NCBI GenBank assembly: GCA_963965975.1
Contig: OZ014417.1
Location: forward strand, 2,337,821 to 2,401,820
Reading direction: 5' to 3'
DNA length: 64,000 bases
Source of the DNA: Xestospongia bergquistia
Taxonomy: Eukaryota; Porifera; Demospongiae; Haplosclerida; Petrosiidae
Shown here: positions 148-62,907 of the stretch, piece by piece
How the letters are laid out: each line of letters opens with the position of its first letter
How positions within the stretch are numbered: the first letter of the stretch is position 1
The notes under the pieces: generated by a model
Database searches by the model: none
The model's input: only the letters and a program-made list of their open reading frames with translations
Told to the model about the DNA's origin: nothing
Position numbers and translations under genes: made by a program

Positions 148-199
148 CTACAAGAATATCATACCTTCAGATAGTTAAGAGCATATATTTTAAACTTAC

Positions 200-823: not shown

Positions 824-1131
824 TTTGTCTTTTAGCTCTTCTGTATTCAATTCGAATTTTCTTCAAATGTTTTTGAATAGTGATAGCTACATTTTGATTT
901 TGAACAACAGGGCCTCCAACAACCTTTATGATGTTGTCCCAAGTAACAGGAGTGGGTTTCATTTCTATCCACTTCTGGAGAATTTCTGTTAATCTAGTTT
1001 CGTCGGATTTGTTCAAACGTTTCAAACCATCAATAAATTAGATTCTACCCCAAGTTGGTCACCAAGTAAGTCCCATCTAGAACTGACAGGAGCTAACAAC
1101 TGCACAAGATGTCGCAGTTCAGGTCTTTTAC
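824..1131 (-). pseudogene. Gene A first death-domain exon, frameshifted
   Basis: Begins GKRPELRHLVQLLAPVSS after acceptor ctatag and ends IEYRRAKRQ at donor AAA/GTGAGT. Conserved death-domain marks are present: LLGDQLGV, LQKWIEM, TPVTWDNIIKVVGGP. The intact gene-B counterpart is 23463-23155. A single-base deletion near 1035 shifts the frame between GVESN and the LNKSDETRL segment, so the domain is not readable as one frame. Confidence 0.7.
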
Positions 1132-1188
1132 CTATAGTTGTAATGACAATATGTAAGTACTATTTCAATAATATAAATATACATATAC

Positions 1189-21159: not shown

Positions 21160-21449
21160 CTATAATTGAAGTACTTCTTTCATTTTAATTGCAGCATCTT
21201 TGTCTCCACATTTCTCTACTGCATCTACTAACTCCTTCCATTCTGGCTGACCAGTGTGTTTTTTTATCCAACAATCTAATGACTCCTCTAATGCTGATTC
21301 TAAATTATATTGCTCATTGATTTTAGTTTCAATTTCATTTCTTTTCTCGTATGGAACTCGTAAGCGGCGTGCTAACAAATTCCAGAAAGATACTTTAAAT
21401 CCACAATGATCAAGTAGATCAAAGGCAGTATCAACAGTGAGTGCTTTGT
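21160..21449 (-). CDS. Gene B terminal death-fold exon
   Basis: Reads TVDTAFDLLDHCGFKVSFWN, LLARRLRVPYEKRNEI, LDCWIKKHTGQPEWKELVDA and ends KMKEVLQL. This is a death domain divergent from the other two. The linker exon 22205-22119 (CQESSLDIGAAKTENITV) precedes it in the correct phase. Gene A would have its equivalent left of the window. Confidence 0.75.
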
Positions 21450-35003: not shown

Positions 35004-38000
35004 CTAACTTTGGTGCATCTTCTCAACAAGTGATTTAGAGGCATGTTCAATGTCATCTTTAGTTAATGAAGGAGGAGCTAGTTCCTGTACATAATGTAGA
35101 TAGAGCAGTACAATAAGATAATGTTTAAAATTACAACTACATGTACATTGCTTACATGTACATTTAAACAAAGTAATAGTACATTCACTTACCAAAGGAT
35201 TATGTATTGCAAAGACATATTTATTATATACATCAGATCTCTTCAGAAATGTACGAATGTTATCACCAATTTGACAATTGTTCACAATTGGACCATCCAA
35301 TTCCTTTAATAATGCCTTCCATGTTGCTTCATTTGATTTCTCCTCTAGCCATTTATTGATCACAATTGACAGGTTCATCTCTGATGAGTTATTGCTTATC
35401 TTTAAGCTTTCTAATTCACCAGTGTTGACTTCAAGTGAGACCCCAATGAGGTACCATTTTTCTTTAATAGGCATTAGTAAAGCTAGAACATCTTTCCTTT
35501 TAGGAACTTTAGAAAGAATTTGGTCAATATCTACAATAGGATATACATGTTCTTAAAATCAAGTCTTAAACAATATTGTAGTAATAATGACAAACATGCC
35601 AACAAGCCATTTTACTTTTAGTAATCTTACCTAATACATTTTCTACTGGTGTATTTTCTAGATGTGATGAATCAGTAATGTCATTTGATGGCCCTATATC
35701 ATATTTAGAAGATACCTTTGGATTCGCTAAGAAGTCTGGTATAGTCTTGGCTAGAACTGGTTCATTGATAGGATATTCTGTAATGACATCAATAAGGTTC
35801 CTCCAGGTCACGTCAGATCTTTTTGTATCAATCCACGTCTGCAAGACTTCAGAAAGCTTATTACTGTCATCATAATGAGCATCATGTTCAATAGATAGAA
35901 TTATTCCTGTAGGTATTTCCAAGGCTTCTCCAATCTCTCTCCATTTATGTTGAATGGGACCAAGGACACGTTGAAGATGAACTTTTTTAGGTTCTTTGTC
36001 TAAAGATTAAAAAACATTAATGCTATATTGTAATGCTTTTAATAATAAGATGACCTCAACAGAAAGGTAGAGTAATACATCAAAGGATATTGTATTAGCT
36101 ACTTTAGTCTTTGAGGGTATACTTAAAACAATGGGATGCATTGTAATTAATAACAATACAAGCAATACTCAGAAACTGTACTATACAACTCTTACCTAAT
36201 AATACATTAAGATATGATGAATCAGTAGTGTCATCTGATGTCCCTTTATTATATGAGAAATGAGAATATGAATATGAACAATGGTTAATAAATTACATGA
36301 AGAAGGATACCTAAGCTAACAGTAGTTACCCTTGTTTTATCAGACCATATCAAATAATGTGCAATCAAACATTATATCACTGAACAAACAGAGACTAACC
36401 AAGTGATTTAGAGGCATGTTTAATGTCATCATCAGTTAATAGAGGGGAGGCAAGATCCTGTACATAATGTAGATAGAGCAGAACAATAAGATAATGCTTA
36501 AAATTAAAACTACATGTACATTGTTACATGTACACTAAAAGTAAATCATTAATAACACATTCACTTACCAAAGGATTACGTCCAGCAAAGACACTCAAAC
36601 AGCTACAGTGCTCCTTTATAGCGACGTGTGTACATTCAACAGATGATAAAAATATGTCACCACAGACATCTAGAATGTGCTGAAGATAATCATCTTGAAC
36701 TGGTAACTCAGCATTTCTTGTATTGAACAGTGCTTTTGTTACCAAAGGAGCAATACAAAGGAATGGATCTCTATTTCCAACAATCTCTTTAACATCAAAT
36801 GTAATGCCATCTGTGTCTATAACTTTGGCTTTAGTAAGAACAGCGAAAGCAACATCTTCCATTGAAAAAAGTGTGCGCTCATAGACGTCAATAGTATGAG
36901 CAGTAGATACTTGATCTGGTGCAATCAGATATTCATCGCTTGTACACGAACATAACTGCTTTTTAAGACTTAGGACTTTCCTAATGATTGAGTTAAAAAC
37001 TTGGTGACTTTCCTCCATTTCTTTGTTTGAGGTAAGTACTGTTACACATCGATTGTATTCAGATACTTCAACAAAAACCTCAAATCTACTCTTCCAATAT
37101 ATACCATTAGTCCATAAAGTACACCTACGAGATAATCTTTGTATAGTAGGGTTAGCTACATTTGCTATACCAGGTTTTCTTCGAAGAGAGAGGCAATAGA
37201 TATAGGCAAGTGAAAGGAGAAGGATGTGAAGAAATCGCGTTGAGAGGAATTCATTGGGATCAGGACACCACAGACACCATCCTAACCCATTCTCTATTTT
37301 GATATCAGTAGGACGTTCAGCACTGATGAGTGCTGGAAAAAATAGGACCTCATCCAATGGCAGAGGTATTGATGCTGATATGTTAGTATCAAGATCACCA
37401 AGTGTGCCTGATTCAATCACATGGCAAAACTGGAGACTTCTAAGAAAACCAACTAACATATCAGTATTGTAATGAGGAAATACTTCCTTTAGAGCTGATA
37501 GAGGTACAACACCAGTATTACTAGCAATATCTCGATAAACATGCTGAATTGCTGCTGGAGCAAATAGGACACCATTGATTTCTGAAAGTAGAGCAGTCTT
37601 ATTTATAACTATCCAACTTTGACCTTCCTCATTTCTGAGGAATAAGATAAGACCTTTATCACTTAAAGAGGTCAGAAGTTCAAGTAACACTGACATTTCA
37701 GATGGAAGAGAAGGATCATTACGCTCTTTTAATAAAGCACATAGCTCTTCTAAATTAATGGCTACTCTTTGAAGAAGCTGCAGGAAGGAGTATTGGACGT
37801 GGCAATAGATACTAATTTTATTGGCTCGATCAAGGACAGTTTTACAGCTCTTTGACAATGTAAAAATAAATTCTTTGACTCCTTTCCCTCCAGGACGATG
37901 ACATTCCATTGGTATAAACCCACAAAATTCCTGTGAATAGATTGCCTTCTCAGCAACTTCGTGAACCAATCCAGATATTGGATCCAAAGCAGTAGTCAGT

Positions 38001-41000
38001 TCATCTAGTCGACTTCCAATGACAATGATTTGGGATCGGTTTGAACTCTTCATTCCTTTGCTGACATTTTCAAGGAAGTTAAACCAGTAGAATAAATCCT
38101 TTCTCATAGTCTCCCTGTCATTGATTAGCTTGGAAAGGACCAAAAACACAGCAGGTGAGCTAAGCATTAGATTTTCTAGGACAGCAGCATGACTACTGTA
38201 ATATTCCCTATGACCAGCGAGGTCATAGAGAACTACATTCCCTATTTCATGGCTTGTAAAGGTATGTACATTAATACCAGCTGTTAGTGGTTCTACGGTG
38301 ACACATTTGGATATATCAAACTTGTAATCAGCTGGTTTCTTAGCTCGTTCCATGATAACAGCAGCAAGAGAACTTTTCCCTGAAGCAATGCTGCCACACA
38401 TAAAGACTTTACCATAGGATTCCACGGGGAAGTCAGCTTGACTTTGCTGAAATGGCTCAAACATTTTTAAAATTTCAAAACGATTCTTGTGATGATGAGG
38501 AACAAGTTCCATAGGTGCTTGTTCATCATTATTCTTGGATATTGGATCCACTCGCCCTGACGATAAGAGAACCTTGATAGTGTCAACTGAACCTTGAGAA
38601 CAAGCATCATGAAGTGGCGTATTCCCACTCTAAGAAAGAAAACGAAAGCTTTAAAGTTCTATAATATTGTTGATTTGATACTTAAAATACAAATAATAAT
38701 GAAATGAGAAAATGTTGTTACAATTATTTGCATTAAATTCATGTATTAAAAATGAATGGCCTAGTTAAATAAAGGTAGAAAATGATATACATAAGGTGCT
38801 GAAAAAGATCATCTTATAAAGCAGTCAAAGGACCATTTTGTCTATGATAAAATGCTGAATAACTGTTGCTCTGTCCTTAAAGACTTACTATAAGAATTAA
38901 ATACTTTCTACTGAATTTCTATGTCACAACCAGTTCAATTAATATTTTCTTTACTTTATTAAAATTTAAATTGAACAGTAGTCTCTATACAAAATTGTAT
39001 AAAACTAGTAAACACAATTAATAATAGGTTTAAAGTTTTTAATAGTTTTAGGTTTTGTAATTACTACAAAAAGTAAACAATGGCCAAAACCCATCAATAC
39101 AATCTTGTACAAAATAAAAGTTAAATAGTTCTATTTAATTATACTCACCTGATTCTTAACGTCAATATGAATAGTATGGTCCAAAAGCACCCTAATAATG
39201 TCAACATTATTATTGTAGGCTGCCCAGTGTAAAGCAGAGTCATTATCCTGAGAATACAAAGACAATGTAATAACAATATAATTTGTACTGTGTAGTAATA
39301 ATGCTACTACAGTAGATATATAATTTATATATTAATGTAACATAATTAAATGTATTCTATATTAGATAAAACTTAATATTCAGCATACATATACATGTAA
39401 ATACAATATGCTGTATATATCCAATAGACAATAGAGATTTATAAAGATGAGACTTTTTCCAAAGTTTTATCTTGTAATATTTAAATATGTGCTTAAGGTT
39501 TAAAGAGCCAGTCCCTCCTACTTTTTGGCAAGCTGATTAGTTGAGGTAGTCTTGTCCTCAAGCTACAACACTCATGGTAAAAGGTATTCTGGTATCTTTG
39601 CTCAATTTTTTGGGACAGGAAATGATATACACACTGGTATCAAGGTGTTCAACAAAATCACTTAAATCCAAATGTTGCCACATGAATGTTGTTATTACGA
39701 CATGGCATCTGAAGCTAGATTTATTTTTTGACATGGCAAAAATAGGATGTAGAGAGATTAATGTCATTATTTCAACATTTAAGATTTTCTGCCTTAAGAG
39801 AAACAAGAAAAAACACCATACTACCTTTTGCAGTGAGTATAGAACTAAAGGATCTAGAAGGAAACTACCGCCCTGTTTTATCAAATGTGATTTGATTAGA
39901 TTGCCTTTGAAAGGCTACTTTGACAAGTTTGTACAAAATGTTGCTCATATTTGCAGAACTTGACATTAGAAGATTAAGCTTGACAAACTATTCCTGCCAT
40001 TATTTTTTACTTGTAGATGAAGAATTTTAGCCTCCAATTGAAAGAATAATAAATACATAGAAAAGAAGTCATGAATGATTCCACTGATATAATAATAGTA
40101 TGACAACTAATAAGCATCATGATACTATCCTGTTCATCTTATTTCCAGACTATCATGCCCAGTATTGTAGTGTCCAATTAAATTGCTTAATTCAAAACAT
40201 GACAAACAAATATCTTTATTATCATGTGACATTTAACACTATAGCAACTATTTTAAGACTCAGAAGAAAACAGGATGTGGATGGATAAATGTCTTTATTA
40301 CAACATTTATTGTCCCAAGAAAATCAAGGCAAAGATACCGGAATATAATAGACCATGGTAGTCTGGAAGATAAAATTATTGTCCTACATTCCAGTTATTC
40401 CAATAGGGCAGTAGGCCTAGTTTGTTCCTAAGCCTATTAACTTGTCAATATGAAATAGTTTGTTAAACTAAAGATATGAACTATTATAGTAAGTATCTTT
40501 GTTAAGCAATGCTACTAACTATATTGCTTACTTCATCTTTAACATCAACAGAACAGCCACTCTCAATCAGAAAAAGTACAATATCTGTATGGTTCTTCTC
40601 AGTAGCCACAAAGAGTGCTGTCTTTCCATTCTAATATAACATAAGATACACATGTATAAAGACATGTATTCGTGTACATGTAAATAGAATTTTGTCATTG
40701 TTTTGTTTTGTTAAGATCAAAGTTTGACAAGAATGTATCACTTACTTTGTTAACAAGGTCTAGATTAGCTCCTTTCTGTGTTAAAAACAAAACAATGTTT
40801 TTGTGTCCCTCCTTCGCTGCTAAGATGAGAGGAGTAAATCCCTCCTAAAACATAACATAATAAATCTATTAATACATAATAAGTAGAACTAGAAATAAAA
40901 TAAACTCATTTAGAAATAACACATCTAAGAAGAATTTTGCAAAGTTACTGGATATCTTATACAAAATGTTAGCCTTGTGCCCAGTAGTTCAGTGAAAGAA

Positions 41001-43244
41001 AGGAATATCTGATAACTACTGTTTGGGCATGAATGTAATTCCCAACATATGTTGGAAAATAGTATAACTCTGTCAACTATGATGTAAGATCCCTTTTAAC
41101 TACAATGTTCACTATCTATGATGGCTACTTGTAGTGCTGATAATCACTTCTCCAATGCTCTACTCTACATTCTAAAGCAGCTAGGAAGAGAAGATGTATC
41201 TCTTTAAAAAGAGCAGTTCTTATCTGTTGAAGCTATGCATGACAGAAAAGATATCCTTTAGGTTGGCAACAGACTTCTTTGAAAGACACATTTTGAAGCT
41301 TGCACTTGAGAAAAATATACGAAGAGATTCCATCATCTCTAGAAATGGTAATATCTAGTAGACTAGTTATTGTGAAGCCTATTTATTTTGGATCCCAATT
41401 TTATTAAACAATTGTACTGCTCCTTTTACAGGCACTAAATCTCTACACAAATGACTGTTTGAAACCATGCTTAAACTTGTGTAGTAAATAATATGTCGTC
41501 AGTAAAAAATCAACCTGTTGATTTGTCATTTCCTATAAAATGTTGTAATTATGATGTCATTATATTGTTTAAGTTACTATAATTATGTTTATCACAAGCA
41601 GTAGTTAACAGACATTCCATCTTTTTGCCAAACATCTTAGTATGAACAAGGCTAACAAAATGTCTGCAAAAGAACTACTTGTAAGCATTCAAGCTTTCTC
41701 TACACATTAAGTATGGTTTCCCTAAATTGGGTGGCATATCGTCTAAGCCATGTTTTCCTTAATAGTATTCATCTTGTTATACCTTACAGATTACCAAATA
41801 TAGTAATACATTGATCTGAATACCTCAGTAGTAACAACATTGATATCAGCATTATGACTGAGTAGTACTTCAGTGATATCTGTATGTCCTTTATAAGCTG
41901 CGTGATGAAGGGCACACCATCCATCCTATAGTAATGACAAACAAATATGAACAATAAAACTACATTACCACTAGGAAAATGAGCTTTAACTAAAGTTTTG
42001 ATTCTGATATCCTTTTTCTTTAAAAGATACTATAGCTTTTGTTATAATTGTATGTCAAACAAATAAACTGAAAGCATCAATTTTGTAAACCTCTGAAGCC
42101 TAAATCATATGTATGACATAAGAACCTGTAATCAATATATCTATTATTTTAAATAATACATGTAGTAACAGCCAAAAAATCAAAAGAAGCTAAAATGTGA
42201 TTTTCAGTATCAGACAAATAGGAAAGTAACAAATAATAAATATCTGTAACACCTAGATTAATACAATGTTAAGACTACTGATTATGATATTCACCGTTTT
42301 GACATATGCTTAATTAAAGGATATTTATATTTTAATAACAATAGTATGTTAATAATACTTATCATTAAAATGCAAAATATCATAATTTTATTATAGTAAT
42401 TCTGAAAGGAAAAATGTGACTGAGAAAAAACAACAGTTGATATTTAGTATGTGTTATTGGCTGAGGGATAATAAATAAATACCTGCTCTGTTTTAATGAT
42501 AGATCAAAATGTTCAGATTAAATAAACATTAGGTACTTAATCAAGGAGGCATAGTAATTAATTTATAAGTCAACTCTTTTATCTTATGCCCAATATTGTG
42601 TGGTATAAATAAACTTACATCATCCAGAGTCATTACATTTGCTCCTTTTGAGAGAGCATCTTTTACTCCTGATAAGTCTCCATTTTTAACAGATTTAATA
42701 AGACTGTCGTTCTAAGATAAAGACAATTATTATAACATGTTTATAGTTAATTTAGCTATATATAAAATATAATCATAATCAATAGTCTTCTTTTATATCA
42801 CAAATTAAGGAGATTACTATTTAGTAATTTTGTCACTTAGTTAATGTATCACTCTATCTACATGTATAAATACATCACTTATTACTTATGTACCACAAGA
42901 TATAATTTGGTTATTAATTTAAAAAGGAGGAAGATGACTTTATAGATATTCAACTATAATTTCTTAAAAAGGGCACTAAGTATATGCAACGATCTCTCTA
43001 TGAAGAAACATATTAAAGAAATTGGTTGAAAAGTTATATAGAATGTTATTGTTAAATGATTATGGCAACTTTTCAAATATATAACTTGGGACTGGTTTCC
43101 AACATCAAGCCTTAACAACATTTATTTGGATTGTGGGGGGGGGGGGGGGGGTGAATCCCAGTGCCCTATCTCTATGAAACAAGAGTCTTTTTACTATTGA
43201 TAAAATGTATATATACATGTCATTACCAGTTCATCTTGACTCAT
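35004..43244 (-). CDS. Gene C: ankyrin-Roc-COR-death-death protein, DAPK-like without kinase
   Basis: A complete minus-strand gene. Exons 43244-43227, 42711-42619, 41925-41824, 40844-40746, 40630-40532, 39247-39149, 38629-36569, 36457-36400, 36243-36196, 35999-35631, 35530-35193, 35084-35004. The total, 3465 nt, is 1154 codons plus stop, with every phase joining. Start MSQDEL at 43244 is the first exon of 18 nt. Then about six ankyrin units, one per exon; a Roc GTPase (P-loop GSIASGKSSLAAVI, G3-like DLAGHREYYSSHA, G4-like IGSRLDEL); a COR and DAPK-type region (GWCLWCPDPNEFLS, VEVSEYNRCVTVL); and two death domains. This is the DAPK1 body without its kinase or calmodulin region. Likely role: a GTP-dependent death-domain adaptor in the cytoplasm or on cytoskeleton; inferred from the family. 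Confidence 0.87.
35193..35530 (-). CDS. Gene C death domain 2
   Basis: Reads LMPIKEKWYLIGVSLEVNTG, ELESLKISNNSSEMNLS, INKWLEEKSNEATWKALLKE, LDGPIVNNCQ. It ends FAIHNPL at a GTAAGT donor, echoing the FAGRNPL end of the Roc-COR exon. The final exon 35084-35004 (ELAPPSLTKDDIEHASKSLV...) follows. Confidence 0.78.
35631..35999 (-). CDS. Gene C death domain 1
   Basis: Reads DKEPKKVHLQRVLGPIQHKW, then REIGEALEIPTGI, LSEVLQTWIDTKRSDVTWRN, LIDVITEYPINEPVLA. It ends in a Ser/Asp linker GPSNDITDSSHLENTP, a sequence repeated in the small exon 36243-36196 (TSDDTTDSSYLNVLL). Confidence 0.78.
36569..38629 (-). CDS. Gene C exon: last ankyrin repeat, Roc and COR
   Basis: 2061 nt (687 codons), starting SGNTPLHDACSQGSVDTIKV (ankyrin) and ending FAGRNPL before donor GTAAGT. 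Gene D's counterpart (60054-57994) has exactly the same length. P-loop near 38400, switch motif DLAGHREYYSSHAAVLENL near 38215, SRLDEL near 38010, conserved CHRPGGKGVKEF near 37895. Confidence 0.88.
39571..40361. mobile_element. Inverted-repeat element, likely non-autonomous DNA transposon
   Basis: In a gene C intron. Left end CTCATGGTAAAAGGTATTCT...GGTATCTTTGCTC...TTGGGACA (39571-39617) pairs, inverted and about 80 % by eye, with 40311-40361. The interior has overlapping ORFs (up to 129 codons) with no recognisable domain. No target duplication confirmed. Confidence 0.5.
43135..43151. repeat. Poly-G tract (17 G)
   Basis: In gene C intron 1, on the plus strand (C run on the coding strand). 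Confidence 0.95.
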
Positions 43245-49231: not shown

Positions 49232-49527
49232 TCAGTTCTGTCTATGGTGGACATGATCATGTATCTGCCCTGCTTTCCTTTTGTTATTAACAAGAGGTCC
49301 CTCGATGGCAGAAATCAGTGCCTCCCAGGTAACAGGGGATGACTCAGTATTTATCCACAGTCTTATTACTTCAGAAAGCTTGCTGTTGTTATTGCAGGGA
49401 GCTTTCACTAAGCCATCCAAATCATTTTTAGGAACTTCAAGGGCTAAGCCAACATCTTCCCAGCGGGCACTAATATCAGCCAACAGCTTAAGCACTTCAT
49501 TATGATCAGGAGCGTTTTTAAAATGAT
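49232..49527 (-). CDS. Gene D terminal death domain
   Basis: DHFKNAPDHNEVLKLLADIS, RWEDVGLALEVPKNDLDGLV, LSEVIRLWINTESSPVTWEA, LISAIEGPLVNNKRKAGQI, ending HVHHRQN then TGA. Family pattern of death domains, C-terminal as in PIDD and UNC5. Confidence 0.82.
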
Positions 49528-52500
49528 CTATAAAAGAACATAGTTCATTGACAATGACCACTGCAGTACTGTTATAGTAGCTATTAGTTTCAGAATAATA
49601 ACCGTAATAGTTATTTAATGATAATTATTATATAGTTCATGTGTGGCTTCATTAAAATATCTTCTACTAAAAGATAAAAATGATCACACTAACTATGTTG
49701 AGTTATTGTTACAGGTAAAGGCTCAAACATCAATTAACTAAAATTATGTATACAACATTGTCAAAGACAATGGGAAAATGATTAATGCAATCAAAAGAGT
49801 TCAACAATTTAACATAATGATATAATGGATACCTTAATTTTAAATTACTATAATGTTTACATGAGAACTTCATAAAAACTTAAAAAATAGAATTTTAAAT
49901 AAAATAAAATAAACAAAATAGTATTTTGTGAAGCACTGAATTGGATAGTTTTGCATTAATTAAATATGGCAGACAACAGAAAATTAATCTAGCAAAGAAT
50001 GATTTTTGCTCAATTTCACAAAAAAACTTTTATGGGCATGATTTGTCTTAAGTATTCAGTAATATACATATTTCTGTACTGATGACCAATATATAGAGTT
50101 ATACAAACCTTGTGATAAAATAGTAGGTGTGTGCACATGAACATCATTATTACTTGATGATATTTTGTCAACACCTATACAAGGAAATAAGAGATATATA
50201 TTATTGTGTTGTTGAGTTACTAAAAATATATCTTACCAGTCCTGGACAAAGAGCAAAATAGACATATCTTCATGTCATTTGGTTCCACTCCATTTAAGGG
50301 AATATAGTGACTAATTTTTGTTGCAGTAGTGGTAGAACTAGGTTCAAAAATCACTGTAAACAAACAGTCGGGGTAGTGGGGTGGACTTTGAAAACCAAAT
50401 CTGTCCACATCATGCTTGAAAATCTAAACAAATTTTGTAATTACTTGATGAGCAACAACCAAAAGCAACTCACTCGACTGGGATGAACACGTGGATGAAT
50501 ACTCCAACCATTACCAAAATCAATTGACTCATTTCCAAATACCAATTCAATGAAGTCATTAGTGGTAGTTTGAAACGTGAACGAAATTTGTATATCTTTC
50601 TTAGCATTACTTGGTAGAGATTTTTTAATATACTAAACCCAAAAAATTAAGCTATATAATTGAATTACTTAATAAAAATATACTCACTTTTAGTAAAGCA
50701 TCAAGTTCTTTAGCAACTATAAATCTCATTAACCATTCACGATTATCTTCTTGAACTTCATATACAACCTGACCTATATATTTGTTATCAGGTGATAATG
50801 AACTACTCCTAAAATTAGACATTTCTGTAATGATAAAAAGATTATGATGACAATGAGCACTTAGTAACACTATGTACATTGAATTGTAAAAAACTAGTTT
50901 TTGAACTGTTTGTCAGGTATAGTTAAGTTGTAGTTCAAATTTAAATCAAAGGGCTTCTTACCTTCTTTTGATTGAGCTTCACCAGTAGAGATATGTGCTG
51001 TAGAAGCATCTGCTCTAACTGCTACATGATCATCAGAGGATGATTGATATGTAGGTTGGTTGACAATGGTTCTTTCAATAACTGTATCTTCAGATGATTT
51101 GCTATTATATTTCGTTTGAAATAACATTGTAACTGGACCAAAAAGCGATTTTACAATGGTCACTAAACAAAAATGATGTAAAAAGATGCTGCCATATTGG
51201 CTACCGGGATAAAACCGTCCTCCTTCTACTATCTGGAAGTTATAAGGAAGTATGTCTTGGTTAGAAGAAGCTTTCACAAAAGTAAGGTAAGCAGTATGAT
51301 CTTGAGTAACTAGCTGTGCACAATGTTGTATCTTTAATTTGATTGGTTGAGCAAGTGGCTTAGTAATAGATAGAGAATATATAGCACTGACAGCTTCTGT
51401 TTCCTTAGGAAATTGAAACTCTCCACCAACCAATACTGCTACAGCTAATTCAACAGTCTCTTTTGAAGATAGGGTATTTTTAGGAACACTAATTCTTAAA
51501 CCATGTTCATCCCAGTTAAAAGATTGAGGACAGTCACCTTGAATTAGGAATAATTTCTTGTCTCCTACATGCACACTGCGAAGATTATCTTTAAGACAAA
51601 AAATATGGAAGATATGTATTATGTAATTTATGTTATATGCATTACCATACCATTTACTGGTACAAGGTAGCTAAATTGGACAGATACATCTCTTGTAGCT
51701 AGTGATGACTTCTTTGTCTCTGTTAGGATAGCTGTACTCTCCTTCTTAAAAACAATTGTTTCTTCTATAGTATATAAAGTGAACATATATTAATGATTAT
51801 AGTATATAGATTATACACAGAAATTTTCTGAATTATAAATTACTTAAAAGAGAACCTTGGGTATGACATAGAAATTGGCTAATAAATCTAACACTACATA
51901 TATACATATGTTGATATACATAGTACAGGCTATTGCCTAACAAAGAGAACTTTATTGTTGATACAGTGTGTGATGTCTTGGGATACAGCATACAGCCCTT
52001 GACATCACACACTGTATCAACAATAAATCCTAAATCCTGAGAGGTTAGGCATATATGTATTTGTGTCTTGATAACATAAGAAATTCAGTGATTTTCAAAG
52101 TTTTAAGGTTTATGAATGTATGTAACACTAGCAATTTGATGCATAACTTTTTGGTGTTTGTAGATGTCATAAGAGTGTATATGGATATACTACTGTGATG
52201 TCACTTTAGCTTTTTATCAGTATGTCACAATATCTAATAGAGGTGCCACCAAAAAACTACAGACCTAAAAGGCACTAATTGAGAGTATTCCAATTACTGT
52301 CAGAGTATTCTGATGGCACCAACATGATCATTAGAATTATTATAAGGTAGTCATTATTGGCTATTAAGATACCTAGCATGGACAGCAAAGCTATATTAGT
52401 GTATAAATCATTCCACTATGCCACAAAGCACACGAGAAACAACATGTACACACAAGTTGCAATATCTATCTCTATTTTTTAAATGATGCATGCCAACAAA

Positions 52501-55500
52501 AGTTATTAAGAGAGCAAGTACTATCAAATATTTAGGAATGGCATTGTCCAGGTTGTGGTGGCATAAAAAATATAGTTTGTTATAATTATACATACGTACA
52601 TACATACATACATATATATGTGTATGTATACATATATATATATTATATATATATGTTACAGTAAGATTGTGCATATAGGGATTTTGCGAAATCCCTGAAA
52701 CTTCCAGGGAGTTTGTGAAATCATGTTTTCACTTAGGGACTTCATAAATTCATTAAAAACTCTAGCAATTTCATGAAATCACTGGAAATAATACCATAGT
52801 TTTGATGACTACTCTGAGGATTTATCATAGTTCAGAGCAGTTCACACTTCCTTTAATGTATTGTTGCACAAATCGCTAGAGTCTTTTAGTGAATTTACGT
52901 ACTGGTTTGTACTGCAAAGCAAGCACCAAAGTTACAAGGTTTGATGACTTCCCATTATAAAAATAATGTGATCTTAATAATATTACATTTCAAGGTTTTA
53001 TTACCTAAAGATGGGAAGCTAATTGGGGTAATTGTTATTCCTTTTTATCAGACTCTATCACAATGTTCTCATCAGAAAATGAAATGCAGAGGGCACAAGT
53101 AGTATGTATGTAAATATTTTAGTCCAGTAAATTTGTAAGGTAGTACATGGGTACTTAAAGAGACTTTAATTGAAAAAAACATCCTATAAATATTTTGGAA
53201 GATACTGACTTCACAGTGAAACACTGACTAGAGCTACAAAGCAGGAGTGTCAATGGAAGGCTAATAGACATAGAATGTTGAAAATATAGAAGAGAAAGGT
53301 AGCGAGAAGCTTTGAGCATTGTTAGTCATACCCATCGTTGTATCACTTGCAGTTAAGGTGTAAAACACCTTAACTGCATGTGATCAAGTGATACTCATTA
53401 ATTGTTACTTTTGCCATGTAAGACATTTTCTAATGCTTTAAAACTTTTATTGCACATACGAACATTTGTTAATAATAAATAAACTATAAGCATTGACTTT
53501 TGGCAATTACTACCCTCCTGGGTACTTGTATAGCATCATAATCTCCTAATTGTGTAGTATACATGCATATAGGTTGATTAATTATGCAGTAAAGCCAGCT
53601 CATTATAGCACTATTAATAACAATAATACTGACCACAGTAATTGTATGCAGGGAGAGTAAAGGCTTGTCCACCCTGTAAAAATTAGCAATACCCAGCAAC
53701 CTTATGCACAAATCCTGTTACCCCTCCCTTCCTATGTAAGTGGCCAGTGAGAAAGGAGGGGTCACAATTCCATATTAAAAGTAACACATAGTACTGTATC
53801 GAGATATGGTGCTAACATCACTTTGAACTTTTATGGTATCAAGCCACAAGTACATTATTGCCCAACCTCTTTTTTTACTGAGAAAAGGTATGAAGTGGCA
53901 TTTAACTAATGTTTTTAATGTTGTTATAAAGAGTTCTTGCCAACTGGTTCCCTTTTTATATTTTTTACTTCATTAATTTAGCTGGAAAGTGATAGTACTT
54001 TTTCTTATTAAAAGTGTTATTATTCGTTTACAAAGAACTTGATGACACTTTAATTAATCATTTCAGTCACTATGATGATACTTTTGTAATTACGATGATT
54101 TTATTACATTATGATATTTTTGCAGATTTCTAGTAATTTGCTTAACATAAAAATCTTTAAAATTATTTTTAAAAGCGTTTTATACAGGAGAACCAATTTT
54201 TAGTAAATTTAGAAAAAATCAAAATTAAGACTGTAACCCCTTAATGTAAAACTTTGTTCATAGTCAAGCTATATCCTTCATATTCTGAAAAATTTTACAA
54301 GAGGTCCTTTTGAAGTCAAAATAAACTCTTATTGCTCAACTACGAGGGCTTTATTATTGATACAGTATTTGATATCTCATGCCTATGGTCCTCTATGGTC
54401 ATCAATGCATTTTTTGTCAAACACCACTAGACAGAATCCTAATTTGTTCAATTTTGGTCTCCAAAAAAATTCTTAATAAAAAACAGTAGCAGCCATAACA
54501 TTAAATACTAAAGGTCTAGACTCTTTAAGTTTAACTATATGTATTAATCTAACCAGAGTAAGGAAATGTTTGAAGCAGCAAATGTAAAAAGTAAAACTGT
54601 GGACACTAAGTAGGCAGAGTTAAGCTTGCAGAATATAGAAAACAAAGGACTTTGTCATACACTAGGTAATTCAAGTATCTACCATTCTATCTATCATTCA
54701 AGACAAGTAATTAAAATATATTGCATAAGAACAATCATGTCTTATTAATTTTTTTTTATTTTGTTATGTATATATTATATCTTACTTTCTAGTTGAATCT
54801 TCATTTTCACACCAATGTCTTTTAACTCATTGCTCTGCTTCAGAAAGAAATCACAGACAGCTTTTAAAAACTCAATTCCTTTTACGTCAACCTGTTGTTG
54901 TAGTTCATTAACTACTTTGTCTGCTTTGTCATAAGTATCACCACTCATACTTAGTACATGTTCTTTAAAATTTACTGATATCAACTTAGCAGCAAAGAGC
55001 TGGTTAACAATAGAAAGAGGTTTAACTTCAATGGCATCAGCAATATCAGCAAAATAGTCTAGAAATATTTCAGATGGATCAATAGTACCTACATAATATG
55101 ACAAGAAAAGGAAAGGTAAATGAGTTAAAGAATAGCCTTGTTGTCAGTCTTTTAAAGAAATGAAATGAAAACACAAAATTTTACACATTTTTATCAATGT
55201 AGACCTTGCATAATAGGATATATCCAGTGTAAAGGATCATTTGTGTTCAAAAAACAAACTATAACTAGAATATGACTCAATTAGTCATTTTATTGCTAGT
55301 TTGTGCTTGAACTAAATGTAAGAAAGAATGTCTGGTAACGTTAACTATTTTCTTGGCATTTAATGCAGGTTTAGGTGAGATATACAATATTTTCCATCAA
55401 TGGATTTCAATAGATGATCCAAGACATCCAGTTAATGATATTGACCAAAGTTATTAATAAAACAAGGAGTGGCAAATGTCGGAGAATTGGCCAGACAGTG

Positions 55501-58500
55501 GGTGGTGGTGGCATAAAAATATACAGTTGATTGGAATAATATATATACATTGCTTATAAGAAGTGCATGTTAAAATGAAAGCTCCCTATTCCACATGCAG
55601 TTCTGCTAACAGTTATATTCAATACCATATATTGTCTTCTTTTACAAAGAAAGACTATTAAATTCAACCATAATGATATGATAATTTTTATTACTCTTAC
55701 TATATAATTGTACATATTATAGTTCCAACTTAACTCCAAAACAGTATGAGTGAAAGTATTTATTACATGCCATTGGCAATATTGCTTTAAAACTTACTAC
55801 TCTCTTGATAAGCAATACTCAGAGGTAAGTCAGTTATTTCTTTTCCTTCTTCATCACTTTGAGATTGAGAATCTATAAAAATGATTTACAAAGGCAATAA
55901 TTATAAAAGTCACAGCAAAGGATTTATTAAATTTAACAGGAACAAGTATATATATAACTGAAGCATCCTTCTACAATTGTTTTGATGATATCGATTTCAC
56001 AAAAACATTTTATCATTAAGGAATTGAAGAGATAACAGTGACAAACAGAAACTAGAAGGCAGAAGGCAAGCTAGCTTGCCTAAAGTTTGAAGAAGCTTCA
56101 AAACTTAACCAGCTATACACATCATCTTAAGGCTCAGTTTAGGCCAATGAAATTATTTTATTGTCAAAAATTATTTGAAAATTGCAAAGATTTTTGCTAA
56201 TGTGAAGACCTTGCTTATATTTGCTTTCAAAAGTAAAAAACTTAGTGATATATGACATGCTACAGAAGTATAGACATCACAAGCAGATCAGAAGAAAAAC
56301 TTTTATTGTACAATCAGAAAAATTTAGGGCCTTTATTTAATAATTATAATACACTAGTGCTCACAAAGTTTAAACTAAACTTAATAGAACATTAAAAGTA
56401 AACGAGTATTCTTGCTTATCATTTCAAGACTGAATAGAGGTGGAGAATTTTGATTCAATCAATAAATTTAAACAAAATCAGTGGGCATAATGTTGTGATA
56501 GTTGTAAATTCAGATGAATCCAAGGATGTACAATGGCATATAAGGCTTAACATGCAAGACTTGTTTATATCCACTGATGTGAACAGAAAGTATTTGCTCT
56601 CATACATGTGAATGGATAATTAAGCAGACGTATATTTGTATTGGTACAAGTATTATGCACACATCGATTGTGTTTTAAATGACAATAGAGGCTGTGTGGA
56701 GAAATAATCCTAAATATACTTATGTTCAGACTCATAATTTGCATGTTGAATTCGTCATATTTGGTAGCAAAAGCATACGTGTCAATAAGCATTCAATACC
56801 AACAGCCACTATCACTGTGAAGTACTTGAAGAAAACTGATTTCAAATGTTAATAATAGTCAAGGCATGTTGACAATCATAGAGTACTTCATTAGATATAG
56901 AAGCAAGATGGCTGACATCTGATAGCAAGTATAACATCTCCATGCTAAAATTAATCCTAAGCTAGTTATTACAGTTTATTACTTCAGCACACAACTTCTA
57001 TTGATAATGCTAACTAAAATTGGCAACAAGATTAATAAAATCTATGAAGACCTTTTATTGAACATTTTCCAAGCTAGGACAAACTGTCTCTTAAAATGAC
57101 CTTCAATATGGTTTAACATGCGTAATCTTTAGTGATCATGGAATTATTATGCAAGTAGTCTATATGATTCTAAGAACTAAAGATATTATTACATATTTAC
57201 CTTGAATATTCTGTTGTAAAGAGCTTTCTAGTTTCAAGTATTCATATATTTTCATAGCTAGAGCTATGTTTTGAACAAGTGGACCCTTTATAACATCTAA
57301 AATAGTGATCCATGTGACAGGAGCACCTTCACCTTGACCATTCATATCCAACCAATTCTGAATAACTTGATCTAGTCTTGATTGATTTTGTATGTTGGTA
57401 TTGGCCAAACCTTGAAGGACATTAAAACTCACTCCAAGACCATATCCAATACTACGCCATAAAGCATTAATATTAGCTAGTTGGATTAAAACTTCATGTC
57501 TTGTAGGCCTTTCAACTGTAAGAATACATACAAAGAAGATAAAGAACTGTCATACAAGATTGCTTAACATACATAATTTAGGGAAATGATTGAATTCATC
57601 AGTTATACTATCCTTTGTAAACATTGTCTCCTGACTACTACCTGTAATATAACAATGTATAACAATTAATGAAAGTAACTAAAAATAAAAGTAGTAGATA
57701 TAAAATCAAGAAATTAAATAATAAAATATCAGAAATATGATACTTTCTAACTTACCTCCAACATCATATGGTGACATCTGTTTGTCAGGTTTGATAACAG
57801 AATTAATAAAATCTGTAATATTAACTAAGTCAATACAAGAGAATACTGACATAATTAGAACCTTTTTTTGTTCTTGTCAGAACATGTTTTGACAATCTTT
57901 GTATTACTTCATCTTTTATTGGTGGACTGGGTATACTCTAAGACAAAAAATTTCCATAGACACACAGTTAAGAGAAAGTGAATGTAAACTTACCAAAGGA
58001 TTACGTCCAGCAAAAATACTAAATTTGTTGAGATGTTCTCTTACAGAGAGGTAGGTAAAATCAGATGATGGATAGAAGAACATGATCTCCCCACATACTT
58101 CTTCTATATGTCGGATGTAGTGATCTGGTAGTGGTAGATATTTGTTGGTGTTAGTAAAGAGAGCTTTGGTCACCAGAGGAGCAATACAAAGGTATGGCTC
58201 TTTTTCACCAACAACTAATTGGACATCAACTATTTCATTGTTAGTAGAAGTAGCAGCTCCTTTCAGTAATACTGCTTTAGAAACATTTCTAAGAGCATAG
58301 ACTACACGATGTCTCTGTTCCTTATCCATGACATCCTTAACATTACCAGGTGCAATAATAAACTGTTTTGAAGTGCATGGACATAATTCATTTTTAAGGT
58401 TAAGAATTTTTTTGATGAGTGATGTACGGAGTTGATAACTTTCCATTAAATGGCTGTGAGACACAAGAACTGTAACACATCTGTTGCATTCAGTAACCTC

Positions 58501-61500
58501 AACCATGACTTCAATATTATTCTCTTTCCAATAAATACCACTTTTCCACATAGTACAGACTCGATGTAACAATTGAGTTGTTGGACTATCAGTAATAAAA
58601 CCAGATTCAGTGGGAGGAGGACAGCAAGTATAAGCTAAGTGAAGAAGTAGAGTATGGAGAAAACGCATAGAGAGAAATTGGTGTGATTCAGGACACCACA
58701 AGCACCAACCAAATCCATCTGTTGATTCAAAGATTGAAGAGGGCTTGTCTTCGTAAATAAGTGCAGGAAAAAATAAAAAATTCTCATCTTTACTAATAGG
58801 GAAGTCATCAGATGGTACATTGTTAGTGATACTTGAAACAGTATAAGAGTCCAACTGATGACAAAATTGTAGACTTGTTAAGAAACGAATCAGCATATCT
58901 GTGTTATGGTTACAGAAAAGTTTTGCTAGAGTAGAGACAGGCATTATACCAGTATTACTGGCAACTGGTTTACGCACACGATCAATGCTTTTATTGAATA
59001 AAACACCATTTACCTCAGTTAAGAGAGCTTTTTTGTCAATAATCACCCATGTGTTAGCCAGAAACAAGATGAGACCCTTGCTTCCAAGAATAGTCAAAAA
59101 TTCTAACACTATAGATCTATCTGTCAAAAGACAAGGCTCATTTAGTTTCATTAATTTGAAACATAGCTCATCTATGCTAATAGCAACCACCTCCAGCTGT
59201 TGAAGATAAGAATTTAGACAGTGGCAGTGATAGCTCATCTTATCATTTTTGTCCACAACAGCTTCACAGCTCTCTCTTAATTTATTCATGAACATTTTGA
59301 CACCATATCCTCCAGGTCGATGACAGTCTATAGGAAAAAACCCTTTGTAATTCTGAAAACGAACAGCCAAATTTGCAACACCATTTACCAAAGGCTGGAA
59401 GTCTTTTATACTGGGGATTACATCAACATGACTTCCAAGGACAAATACTTGACTTGAGCTAATTAACTTCATGCTTACATTTTCGACAAAGTTAAACCAG
59501 AAAAGCAGATCTTTCTTAATTGTCTCCTCATCGTCTGTAAGGTTTCTTAAAATTGCAAATACAGCTGGTGACCTCAACAAGAGAGTTTCCAGTACTGCAG
59601 CATGGCTACTGTAATATTCTGGATGTCCAGCAAAATCAAAAATTATAATATTTCCTATTTCGCTACTACGAACACTGTGGTACTCAATTCCAGTGGTTTG
59701 TAATACAACACCTTCAACACACATTTCTGCATCAATATTATGAAAAGACCAATTGTTAGCACGATAAGAAATAACAGCAGCCAATGAACTTTTACCAGCT
59801 GCTGTCTTTCCGCAAAGAAATAATTTAGCATATGATTCTGTGAGGTAGTCTCTGTGACATTGTTTGAATGGCTGAAACAACTTCAATAGTTGAAATCTAT
59901 TTCTGTTAGATGGTGAAATACAATCTAATGGCATTTGTTGATGGTTGTTTAGAGCTACTAGATGATCTGGATCTAGCTGGACATTATGTAAAAGGTAGCG
60001 TATCATTTCTTCACTGCCACTTTGACAGGCTAAATGTAGTAGATTATTACCATTCTAAAATGAAAATAGTGAAATCAGAAATAATTACTGTATATATAAT
60101 TTAATATATTTCATGTGCAATACAATAACAAATACACAAATTAACCTGGTTATAACAATTCTTAAGAAAGCTTTTGATATATAACCACAAAAAAAACTGA
60201 ATCTTTCAAAAGGCAGTTACAACATTAAACATTTTAAAAAATATATTCAATAAAATATTTAAAATAGCACTTGCCATTTTTAAAAAAAGCTAATATTTAC
60301 ATCTTGATGTATTTGGTATAGTGAATTATCACATACTGGTTCAGTATTTATATAAAGAAGGAGTATTGAATACATCTGTGTATTAAAGTGTCTGTGTGAA
60401 ATAGACATTCCACAATGACACTAGAAGTGAAAATGGCAACAGTGAAATTTAATTATTTTCTAAAGTCTATTTAATTTCCTCCTTCTTTGAACATTCATTC
60501 AATATCATATTAAGACTTAGTCTTTCACTTAAACAATCCCTATAAGTCAGAATACAAAAAAAAAGAGACAAGATCTTCACTCAGCAGTTGCTCTACCATT
60601 CTCTATACTCCATGGAGTGACACCATACATAAGACCAATTATTGATCCATTTATGAATAGTATCATTAATTAATATAACAACAGCAGCCTATGTCTGACA
60701 CAATACAAGTGAAAACTGAGATTAAGGGTCATAAAAGCAATTAAAGAAAATGTCAATCCTCAAAGAAAGAACTAGAAATTTGAAAAAGCATGTCCTTTCT
60801 TATTAATGGGTTGTAATATTCATTGTTAAACTCTTCCAATGGTAGGAATTTTGTCATTTTAATTTGGCTTTAGTACTTTTCCAACTGCGAATGATTACTG
60901 TTCTTGGAATCTACTTAATTACAAAAACCACATTAACTATATACTTATTAAATTATCATGCCAAATTTGACCAATGATTGTAAGTACATATTATAAATAG
61001 GACTCTCAATATAAAGAGTAGTTAAACTACAAGACACCAACAAACTCTCTATTAGATATATCTCATCTTATGTGTCATATCATGACATGTGCATCAAGTC
61101 ACTAACAAGCTAGAACATCAAAACACTTAATTCAAGTAAAGTAATAAAAATATGCATGTCTAAGCTTAACTAACGTCTATGCTCTAGTATATTATTGGTG
61201 ACATGATTTGATGACTTTAGTTATTATATAATTTTACATTGTCACATTGTCTATATGTTGTTGTTAGAATGCTATTAAGGTGTGATTAGGAAGCCTATAA
61301 AGTTCTTGTTATCATATTCATTGTGTAATGTAATATAGTAATTAAATAATATGCAACAGTTTGAACACATTTTTCTCAGTTCTATCACCAGGAGTGCATG
61401 AGTGTTGCAAAGCAACGTGAAGGAGCATCAAATTAACTCACATTATATTTATATTCTAACAACATGGTCAGGGATTATTCCATATAAGGAAAATACACTT

Positions 61501-62907
61501 ACTTAGCATAAGTACTGTTAAGTACATGACAGAGCAATGAATATTATTACAATCAGCAATGGTGAGTAAAATGAAGAAGTTATGAGACACTTAAAAGAAT
61601 TGGACATGGAGATTATGAAGATTTTTGTCATTAAAGAGGTGGAAACAATTGAACAACATATATCTCTTTATCCAACAAGATGAGTTCTTTGGCAAGACTA
61701 ACTCCAGGCTAGGGAAATTGCTGGAGTTCTCACAGAGAATTTCTCTAGCTTTTTTGCATCTATTACAAGGTTGCTTGACCATCTTCTTGACCTCTCTTCT
61801 TTTTTTTATCTATTTCAAGCGCACCTAACTAAGAGGTTACAGCTCATAAACTATTAAAATGCAAAACAGTTAGTAGTTATACCCATATATGGACATACAT
61901 TCCTAGCCTTGATTCGACAGTTAGAGAAGTTGGATACTCCTTCACATCGCTTTGTGACACTCATGCACTCCTGCTATTACTCATAAAGAATTTTATTTAT
62001 AATCTGAGTACATGTACAGGTTAAACAGATGGTTTTACTATTCATTCCTTGCATTGTTCATGTCATACTGTAATTGGTGAATTAATGTGGTGTTAAAATA
62101 ATGCAAACTGCCCAAAATTTAGCTGTTGAACACACATACACACACACAGGCACAAGGTTGACATGGTTCACTTGGCACTTGTATTATGTTGTACCATACA
62201 CTAAGGTAGTGCATGTTAAGTATCTACTGTCCATTGATATCGGCAAAAGGGTCATCCTCTGAATCACAGTCACTCTTAGTTTTGTCCATTGCCTCATAGA
62301 TTCCTGCATGGCTCCACAAACCCACCATGCACAATTCCAGCCTCAGTTCTTTCACTTTGTCCCACTAGCTCCGCTTCTCTCCTCCAATAAGATGTTCTCC
62401 ACAGCATTGCTGACTTCTCTTGTGACAACATCTGGTAGCTCAGCTTCGTTGCTAGTAGGAAGAGACTGCTTCTTGAAATGCTTGAATAACGTAGCCATTT
62501 CTCTTGATCGATTGTTGGATAGAACTAGAAGTGCTAAAACATGCAGTTTAACACATTCGATCTAAATTAATTTCTGTAAAAAAATATTTTCTTAATAATC
62601 CCGAAGCTAGTATACTTCCTATAGTATACTTTTTGTCAATTAATTTGGGCTTCAGTTCTTTTCCAACTGTGATAGATAGGATTATAGTTTTTTGAAAGTT
62701 TTGGTCAAAAGCATGTTATCAAGATTTGAAGTAGTAGATAGTCTGGGTATCAATTTTGAATGCCTCATTAAAATGTCATGCTTGAACAACTGTAATGTGA
62801 CTTACTTTGTCCCTAGCATTCACATCAACTTGTCCAATTTCAATTAATAACTTCAAAACATAAACATGACCCTCCTTTGTTGCAACATGTGCAGGTGTTT
62901 GTTCATG
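49232..62907 (-). CDS. Gene D: ankyrin-Roc-COR-death-CARD-like-ZU5-death protein, 5' end outside
   Basis: Minus-strand exons 62907-62806 (ankyrin), 60054-57994 (ankyrin, Roc, COR), 57937-57862, 57812-57756, 57641-57573, 57515-57201 (death), 55872-55798, 55088-54786 (CARD-like), 51764-51651, 51588-50962 (ZU5), 50824-50688, 50632-50474, 50423-50237, 50174-50109, 49527-49232 (death, stop). From 60054 the exons sum to 4542 nt, 1513 codons plus stop with every phase joining; with the first exon 1547 residues are visible. The Roc body is DAPK-type, the ZU5-to-death tail is the PIDD/UNC5/ankyrin type. Expected to act as a GTP-switched death-fold scaffold; no enzyme other than the GTPase is seen. The N-terminus must lie past 62907; I see no further exon up to 64000. 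Confidence 0.82.
50109..50824 (-). CDS. Gene D region after ZU5, possibly UPA-like
   Basis: Four exons (50824-50688, 50632-50474, 50423-50237, 50174-50109) read YIGQVVYEVQEDNREWLMRF, ISFTFQTTTNDFIELVFGN, RFGFQSPPHYPDCLFTVIFE and ISHYIPLNGVEPNDMKICL. The position between ZU5 and death domain fits a UPA domain, but I do not recognise the sequence with confidence. Confidence 0.5.
50962..51588 (-). CDS. Gene D ZU5 domain exon
   Basis: Reads FNWDEHGLRISVPKNTLSSK, VELAVAVLVGGEFQFP, AVSAIYSLSITKPLAQPIKL, LPYNFQIVEGGRFYPGS, GSIFLHHFCLVTIVK. This is the beta-rich ZU5 pattern of UNC5, PIDD and ankyrins (a 'beta, IPxxxL, beta' start and a final strand before the UPA part). The conserved HFS autoproteolysis motif of PIDD is not visible: HFCLVTIV stands where it might be, so self-cleavage is not supported. 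Confidence 0.8.
51951..52027. repeat. Perfect 27-bp inverted repeat
   Basis: Arms 51951-51977 (TTTATTGTTGATACAGTGTG...) and 52001-52027, spacer 23 bp, in a gene D intron. GCCTAAC and GTTAGGC pair further out (51936, 52043). A degenerate single arm recurs at 54349-54377. Probably a small fold-back element. Confidence 0.85.
52583..52660. repeat. (CATA)n/(TA)n microsatellite
   Basis: Mixed TACA, CATA and TA units in a gene D intron. Confidence 0.9.
53348..53378. repeat. Hairpin with 14-bp perfect stem and AAA loop
   Basis: TGCAGTTAAGGTGT, loop AAA, ACACCTTAACTGCA. Lies at the end of a dispersed repeat shared with 3540-3725. In a gene D intron. Confidence 0.85.
54786..55088 (-). CDS. Gene D second death-fold domain, CARD-like
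   Basis: 101 codons: STIDPSEIFLDYFADIADAI, PLSIVNQLFAAKLISVNFKE, DKADKVVNELQQQVDVKGIE, FLKAVCDFFLKQSNELKDIG. The pattern 'leave no later than, then DKA...LL...V...G...F...L' is that of a CARD, but no residue is fully diagnostic. Could also be a divergent death domain. Confidence 0.6.
57201..57515 (-). CDS. Gene D first death domain
   Basis: FERPTRHEVLIQLANINALW, SIGYGLGVSFNVLQGLANTN, LDQVIQNWLDMNGQGEGAPV, TWITILDVIKGPLVQN. Closest in the window to death domain 2 of genes A and B, and preceded by a linker exon (57641-57573) ending in ITDEFNHFPKL that matches their NEMSNFAKL linker. Confidence 0.8.
57994..60054 (-). CDS. Gene D exon: ankyrin repeat, Roc and COR
   Basis: 2061 nt, starting NGNNLLHLACQSGSEEMIRY. 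P-loop LCGKTAAGKSSLAAVI, switch DFAGHPEYYSSHAAVLETLL, G4-like GSHVDV, CHRPGGYGVKMF, then the COR and DAPK-type region GWCLWCPESHQFLSMRFLHT and VEVTECNRCVTVLVSHSHL. Ends FAGRNPL, as in gene C. Confidence 0.88.
61389..61973. mobile_element. Non-autonomous DNA transposon with 41-bp inverted repeats
   Basis: Termini CAGGAGTGCATGAGTG... at 61389-61429 and inverted at 61933-61973, about 36 of 41 bases matching by eye. Flanking CTATCAC (61382-61388) and CTATTAC (61974-61980) look like a decayed target duplication. 585 bp, no domain in the small ORFs. In a gene D 5' intron. The CAGG ends and 7-8-bp duplication suggest hAT, unproven. Confidence 0.75.
62224..62498 (-). pseudogene. Transposase relic: N- and C-terminal pieces only
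   Basis: Minus ORF from ATG at 62498 reads MATLFKHFKKQSLPTSNEAE, LPDVVTREVSNAVENILLEE, then stops at 62354. A further piece (62294-62224) reads EAMDKTKSDCDSEDDPFADI and stops. The start resembles the N-terminus of uncharacterised transposon proteins that are abundant in sponge genomes, as I recall them; the pair looks like the two ends of an element with the middle deleted. Confidence 0.4.

What the first reader, a model, noticed from the sequence alone, without database searches (positions are those of the whole stretch)
49232..62907. New domain architecture: DAPK-type ankyrin-Roc-COR body fused to a ZU5-death tail
Fourteen consecutive exons sum to 4542 nt (1513 codons plus stop) with every phase joining, so ankyrin, Roc, COR, death, CARD-like, ZU5 and death domains belong to one open gene. 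Known proteins carry either ankyrin-Roc-COR-death (DAPK1) or ZU5-(UPA)-death (PIDD, UNC5, ankyrins); I know of none with both. A GTPase switch with three death-fold docking sites would make a large signalling hub.
Basis: partly seen in the sequence, partly recalled or inferred. Interest (0 to 1): 0.8.

Follow-up and report, generated by a model that had tools for sequence, protein, structure and literature searches.

The report
Mosaic GTPase–death-domain gene with ZU5 tail
A probable sponge gene joins a DAPK1-like ankyrin–GTPase body to a ZU5–death-domain tail like that of PIDD or UNC5, apparently assembled from swappable exon modules; the combination looks new but is built from known cell-death parts.

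Summary
The exon chain is real: 14 exons 60054–49232 (minus strand) give 4542 nt, 1513 codons plus stop, GT-AG throughout, phases joining. A further ankyrin exon lies upstream; the 5' end is outside the window. Ankyrin is solid. Roc (Pfam E=0.0025; 1.5e-4 in a 47%-identical paralogue; LRRK2 Roc top PDB match) and ZU5 (E=6e-4) are supported but below Pfam's curated cut-offs. Both death domains are supported. COR, CARD and UPA labels rest on position; two structure predictions were poor. The window holds three sister genes. All 10 death-fold, CARD-like and ZU5 exons examined begin in phase 1; 7 of 8 non-terminal ones also end in it. The first death domain groups with one neighbour (96/96), the GTPase body with another: the gene looks like an exon-shuffled mosaic. 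An H-H-F-C tetrapeptide lies near where PIDD and CARD8 self-cleave; untested. That ZU5 shares the transcript is likely but unproven: a 3.0 kb intron separates the halves, and short hidden exons cannot be excluded. New variant of a known kind, moderate interest.

The parts
62806..62907 (-). Ankyrin exon, 34 codons, phase 0-0, follows an acceptor (5' end of gene lies beyond 64000)
57994..60054 (-). 687-codon exon, phase 0-0: ankyrin repeat, Roc GTPase (aa 111-245 of the 1548-position model; G1 GKTAAGKS, G3 DFAGH, G4 GSHVD; motif names recalled), then about 470 aa in the COR position
   Evidence: Pfam Ank/Roc, LRRK2 Roc match, 47% identical to 38629-36569, motif positions; COR not confirmed
57862..57937 (-). 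linker exon, phase 0-1, weak donor; same place and phases as linker exon 36457-36400 of sister gene B
57756..57812 (-). linker exon, phase 1-1
57573..57641 (-). linker exon 1-1 ending in FPKL(F), like the FAKL linker exons before death 2 of genes C (22984-22907) and D (639-562)
57201..57515 (-). Death domain 1, single exon, phase 1-1
   Evidence: 53-57% identical to gene C/D death 2; groups with C_D2 at 96/96
55798..55872 (-). linker exon 1-1
54786..55088 (-). CARD-like exon, phase 1-1 (label unconfirmed)
   Evidence: no Pfam/PDB support; poor all-helical model
51651..51764 (-). linker exon 1-1 at start of the ZU5 module; no in-frame ATG
50962..51588 (-). ZU5 exon 1-1; Pfam ZU5 at residues 26-98 of the 208 aa scanned
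   Evidence: 20.4 bits, E=6.4e-4
51167..51178 (-). H-H-F-C tetrapeptide (aa 1195-1198), about 40 residues after the Pfam ZU5 match; candidate self-cleavage site by analogy with PIDD HFS / CARD8 SFS
   Evidence: position; motif from PMC3210808 passages; untested
50237..50824 (-). three exons (50824-50688, 50632-50474, 50423-50237; phases 1-0, 0-0, 0-1) in the UPA position between ZU5 and death; unconfirmed
   Evidence: only a weak DUF5884 match; last exon has a negative codon score
50109..50174 (-). linker exon 1-1, weak donor, codon score about zero
49232..49527 (-). Death domain 2 and stop codon
   Evidence: Pfam Death E=0.0012; FADD chains the only PDB matches of the tail (6 of 6 rows, best E=0.2)
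35009..42711 (-). Sister gene B: ankyrin exons (upstream ones recognised by eye), Roc/COR-position exon 38629-36569, two death exons; no ZU5 found; 5' and 3' ends unresolved
21160..25831 (-). Sister gene C: GTPase-like exon (Pfam Roc only E=0.078) and three death exons
159..3331 (-). Sister gene D: exon similar to that of C (no Pfam hit of its own) and death exons; runs off the window; death 1 match split between two frames

Best explanation
This is one animal (probably sponge) gene for a large intracellular Roco-type GTPase scaffold with several death-fold docking sites. Its ankyrin-Roc-(COR) body is of the type of neighbouring gene B; its first death domain is of the type of neighbouring genes C and D; and it carries a CARD-like exon and a ZU5-(UPA-like)-death tail. 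These pieces are phase 1 exon modules, so they can be inserted or exchanged without breaking the frame (exon shuffling in a local gene cluster). Likely working: the ankyrin repeats bind a trigger or partner; the Roc GTPase switches shape or pairing state; the ZU5 module holds the last death domain closed, as in UNC5b, and may release it, possibly after self-cleavage at H-F-C; the freed death folds seed assembly of FADD/caspase-type partners. Shown here: exons, phases, paralogy, Roc, ZU5 and death matches, mosaic ancestry of death 1. Inferred: single transcript, COR, CARD, UPA, GTP switching, cleavage and downstream partners.
For: Frame-joined exons with no internal stop. No segment of the 3.0 kb intron scores above 6.8 bits on either strand, the level of the other two long tail introns (7.0 and 6.8). 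No in-frame Met in exon 51764 or before aa 1212 in the ZU5 exon, so a separate ZU5 gene would need a hidden start exon. Roc; motifs. ZU5. Deaths. Body is B-type (47% identity) while death 1 groups with C_D2 (96/96) and shares the layout of C and D, a short linker exon ending F-x-K-L and then a single death exon. All 10 death-fold, CARD-like and ZU5 exons examined start in phase 1 and 7 of the 8 non-terminal ones end in phase 1. Local duplications in the window, including one inside gene B at 86% identity.
Against: Roc, ZU5 and Death 2 lie below Pfam curated cut-offs; COR, CARD and UPA gave no hit; a PDB search with the ZU5 exon alone found nothing. The two structure models were poor (pLDDT 40 and 49); ZU5 was not modelled. 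No ZU5 or CARD relative elsewhere in the window, so the fusion is seen once, though only gene C appears to end inside the window. Two donors are weak, three exons have no codon-bias support, and only 4 of 15 exons outscore the best intron ORF. The 3.0 kb and 1.3 kb introns could hide a gene boundary: several accepted exons score as low as 2-4 bits, so a short hidden exon would not be seen. Linker exons are also phase 1-1, so that symmetry is general to the tail, not special to the domains. The death tree has 8 short rows, long branches and 4 of 5 inner branches unresolved, including the place of death 2.
Confidence: 0.6

Rival explanations
1. Two adjacent genes: an Ank-Roc-(COR)-Death-(CARD) gene ending near 54775 (the CARD-like exon reads into a stop three codons past its donor), and a separate ZU5-death gene whose first exon is hidden in the 3.0 kb intron.
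For: Read-through of the CARD-like exon meets a stop at once (ORF 54775-55143); largest intron of the chain (3021 nt); no ZU5 found near gene B; a phase match at this junction alone has about a 1 in 3 chance; codon scoring could not see a short start exon.
Against: Good donor GTAAGA after the CARD-like exon; no coding-like segment in the intron on either strand; exon 51764 has an acceptor and no Met; a 2751 nt intron also occurs between the ankyrin exons.
Confidence: 0.26
2. Domain labels over-read: the body is a divergent GTPase not of the Roco family and the beta-rich exon is only ZU5-like, so the DAPK1 and PIDD/UNC5 comparisons are misleading.
For: Sub-cut-off scores; no COR, UPA, FIIND or Peptidase_S68 hit; poor structure models.
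Against: Seven of ten PDB rows for the Roc-COR profile are LRRK2 Roc, including the best; Pfam Roc at the same place in two diverged paralogues; the ZU5 match covers 76 of 97 profile positions.
Confidence: 0.13

Closest known systems
DAPK1 (Roco group 3: kinase-CaM-Ank-Roc-COR-Death)
   Same: Ankyrin repeats directly before a Roc GTPase and a COR-sized region, then a death domain
   Different: No kinase seen (5' end missing; one catalytic-loop pattern searched, none in window); extra CARD-like, ZU5 and second death modules; COR unconfirmed
PIDD1 / UNC5 / CARD8-NLRP1 (ZU5-UPA-death fold)
   Same: ZU5 followed by a UPA-sized region and a terminal death domain; an H-F-C near where PIDD has HFS
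   Different: N-terminal part is Ank-Roc rather than LRR, receptor or NACHT; UPA unconfirmed; Cys instead of Ser at the candidate site; the His and Glu residues that help CARD8 cleave were not traced; cleavage untested
Other invertebrate death/NTPase fusions (anemone NG3 kinase-death-TIR with Roc/COR, PMC5094078; NACHT-Zu5 and NACHT-Ank, PMC12909245; amphioxus repeat-ZU5-kinase, probably LRR, PMC9573974; Amphimedon TRADD-N expansion, PMC8195603; passages only)
   Same: Same domain vocabulary recombined in lineage-specific ways
   Different: None of the passages read describes Ank-Roc-COR with ZU5 in one protein

Membership tests
Roco (Roc-COR) proteins | Roc GTPase domain | tested here: met
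   Pfam Roc E=0.0025 (gene A), 1.5e-4 (gene B), both below the curated cut-off; LRRK2 Roc best PDB match E=0.0047
Roco (Roc-COR) proteins | COR domain in tandem after Roc | tested here: inconclusive
   No Pfam COR hit at E up to 10, filters on; AlphaFold model pLDDT 40; a conserved region of about 470 aa follows Roc in A and B
DAPK1 group | N-terminal CaM-regulated kinase | tested here: inconclusive
   No match to one kinase catalytic-loop pattern in six frames of the window, but the 5' end of the gene is outside it and a split motif would be missed
DAPK1 group | Ankyrin repeats before Roc and a death domain downstream | tested here: met
ZU5-UPA-death proteins | ZU5 domain | tested here: met
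   Pfam ZU5 E=6.4e-4, 20.4 bits vs cut-off 21; PDB search by sequence found none
ZU5-UPA-death proteins | UPA domain | tested here: inconclusive
   No UPA or FIIND hit; only a weak DUF5884 match E=0.032
ZU5-UPA-death proteins | Terminal death fold | tested here: met
   Pfam Death E=0.0012, 19.3 bits vs cut-off 22.6; FADD best in PDB (E=0.2 alone; E=0.003 for the 7-member family profile)
Self-cleaving ZU5 (PIDD/CARD8) | HFS/SFS site and autoproteolysis | not testable with these tools
   HHFC at aa 1195-1198; Cys replaces Ser; needs biochemistry
CARD family | CARD profile or fold | tested here: inconclusive

The most novel reading that the evidence does not exclude
A single polypeptide fuses the equivalents of DAPK1 and UNC5H2, two proteins reported to interact in cell death (PMC4917528 passage, citing Llambi 2005), so it is a 'Rosetta stone' for an ancient DAPK-ZU5/death pathway; and it uses an H-F-C site for thiol-based self-cleavage to release a death-domain fragment under GTPase control.
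Probability: 0.12. Interest if true: 0.72.

Novelty: new variant of a known kind. Interest (0 to 1): 0.43.

Why it matters
If it is one transcript, it couples two switches that sit on separate proteins in the papers seen (a Roco GTPase and a ZU5 death-domain latch), and shows concretely how an early animal could build death/immune scaffolds: by exchanging phase 1 exon modules between neighbouring genes. The mosaic origin is testable in other sponge genomes.

Tried and rejected
Structure prediction of the Roc-COR exon with a two-sequence alignment (pLDDT 40) and of the CARD-like exon alone (pLDDT 49) was poor; Foldseek with the latter gave 0 of 90 matches at E<=0.001 (50 rows shown) and is not used. 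Scans of viral contigs with the Roc-COR alignment and the ZU5 exon and of bacterial/archaeal genomes with the Roc-COR alignment found no relatives, as expected for a eukaryotic gene. NCBIfam gave nothing credible. I considered a kinase upstream in gene B: its first recognised ankyrin exon (42711) follows an acceptor, so something lies upstream, but one kinase pattern found nothing. I considered that gene B also carries ZU5: loose tblastn found none (best ZU5 E=1.4), but B's last recognised exon (35084-35009) ends in a donor and a retrotransposon lies downstream, so this is open. I considered pseudogene status for gene A: no internal stop or frameshift in the chain. On checking, I corrected an earlier reading of the amphioxus protein in PMC9573974 from ankyrin to repeat (probably LRR)-ZU5-kinase, since its column label was not seen.

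Full report
1. The exon chain. I rebuilt the gene from the minus strand. All 14 acceptors are AG and all 13 internal donors GT; phases join throughout. Two donors (after 57862 and 50109) are weak. An extra in-frame ankyrin exon, 62907-62806, lies upstream and itself follows an acceptor, so the start of the gene is outside the window; no further ankyrin exon was seen by eye up to 64000. Codon scores trained on the sister genes favour the chosen frame over both others in 15 of 15 exons (stops in the other frames are penalised, which helps this); 12 of 15 are above zero, one of them (57641) barely, and three (57937, 50423, 50174) are at or below zero. Only 4 of 15 exons outscore the best of 177 intron ORFs (15.9 bits, at 62561 in the first intron).

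2. The domains. Pfam gives ankyrin (E=1.6e-12) and Roc (E=0.0025; below cut-off) in the body. The paralogous exon of gene B gives Roc at the same place with E=1.5e-4. A two-sequence profile of the body finds LRRK2 Roc as best PDB match (E=0.0047), and 7 of the 10 PDB rows are LRRK2 Roc. The GTPase motifs are intact by eye: GKTAAGKS, DFAGH, GSHVD (motif names recalled). No COR hit was obtained. The ZU5 exon gives Pfam ZU5 with E=6.4e-4 and 20.4 bits against a cut-off of 21; by PDB sequence search it finds nothing. The last exon gives Death, E=0.0012, below cut-off. The first death exon has no Pfam hit of its own, but 6 of 7 aligned death domains of the four genes hit Pfam Death at E<=1, best 2.7e-6 (the eighth, C_D3, was left out of that alignment and hits Death on its own with E=6.8e-9), and their profile best matches FADD (E=0.003). 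The CARD-like and UPA-like labels could not be confirmed.

3. The neighbourhood. The same strand carries three sister genes. Gene B (42711-35009 as recognised) has ankyrin exons, a 47%-identical Roc/COR-position exon and two death domains. Genes C (25831-21160) and D (3331 to 159 and beyond) share a different exon with a P-loop-like start (Pfam Roc only E=0.078 in C; nothing in D) and death domains. No ZU5 or CARD relative was found elsewhere in the window, and no match to one kinase pattern. D runs off the window and B's 3' end is unresolved, so absence of ZU5 is firm only for C.

4. Mosaic origin. The body of gene A matches gene B, but its first death domain groups with death 2 of gene C (ultrafast bootstrap 96, SH-aLRT 96; a tree of 8 short rows with long branches and 4 of 5 inner branches unresolved, so only this one node is used). 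It is 53-57% identical to death 2 of C and D, against 24-32% for gene B's death domains (56-59% and 25-32% in the alignment). It also shares their layout: a short phase 1-1 linker exon ending F-x-K-L, then a phase 1-1 death exon (315 nt in A; 309 in C and D). Counting A_D1, the CARD-like exon, the ZU5 exon, A_D2, B_D1, B_D2, C_D1, C_D2, C_D3 and D_D2, all 10 start in phase 1 and 7 of the 8 that are not terminal end in phase 1 (B_D2 ends in phase 0). D_D1 was left out because its match is split between frames, and the three UPA-position exons (1-0, 0-0, 0-1) were not counted. Most linker exons are also 1-1, so the symmetry belongs to the whole tail. Phase 1-1 exons are the classic substrate of exon shuffling in animals (recalled; PMC8001218 on this subject was seen only in a search listing). 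The window shows recent duplications as well.

5. One gene or two. For one gene: phases, a good donor after the CARD-like exon, no coding-like segment in the 3.0 kb intron (at most 6.8 bits), and no Met before aa 1212 in exons 51764 and 51588. Against: the CARD-like exon meets a stop three codons beyond its donor, the fusion is seen once, no cDNA is available, and accepted short exons score as little as 2-4 bits, so a short hidden start exon would escape the test. I put one gene at about 0.7.

6. How it may work. By analogy only: Roco GTPase regulation of DAPK1 (PMC4917528 and PMC6337361, passages); ZU5 packing against the death domain in UNC5b, and self-cleavage just before the last ZU5 strand at HFS in PIDD and SFS in CARD8 (PMC3210808 passages). 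Gene A has H-H-F-C about 40 residues after the Pfam ZU5 match, followed by the hydrophobic LVTIV. In that paper the serine was needed for CARD8 and NLRP1 cleavage; whether cysteine could take its place is my inference, and the helper His and Glu residues were not traced here. DAPK1 and UNC5H2 are reported to interact (PMC4917528 passage), which makes a fusion of the two types suggestive.

7. Novelty. In four searches of the paper library (20 of 47 listed, 13 of 14, 2 of 2, 10 of 15) I saw no description of Roc-COR with ZU5 in one protein; only two papers hold both 'ZU5' and 'COR domain' and the passages read from them do not join them. Supplements and subscription papers were not searched, and no collection of animal genomes was on hand. 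Similar recombinations of the same vocabulary are in print. Hence a new variant of a known kind, moderate interest.

Noticed in passing
45495-48742 and 17320-20648; 44610-45279 and 16671-17340; 43772-44572 and 15870-16681; 9267-9969: Direct segmental duplications (91.5-98.8% identity) between the GTPase-death genes; the copied + strand segment resembles DEPDC5 (label recalled from a motif; no Pfam hit for the pieces scanned).
   Followed up: partly
28799-32765: Copia-type retrotransposon on the + strand (RVT_2 E=1e-51) with 225-base end repeats 97.3% identical, between genes B and C.
   Followed up: partly
36400-36593 and 35027-35217: Gene B contains an internal duplication (86%) spanning the end of an exon, an intron and the next linker exon, showing module copying inside one gene.
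   Followed up: yes
1129-861: Death 1 of gene D matches in two different frames, so this copy may be broken or misassembled.
   Followed up: no
5201-8474: Long array of mutually similar repeats.
   Followed up: no
62561-62355: Coding-like ORF fragment inside the first intron of gene A, possibly from a transposon; no Pfam hit.
   Followed up: partly
52027-51951: Inverted repeat with 27-base perfect arms in the 3.0 kb intron, like a small inverted-repeat transposable element.
   Followed up: partly
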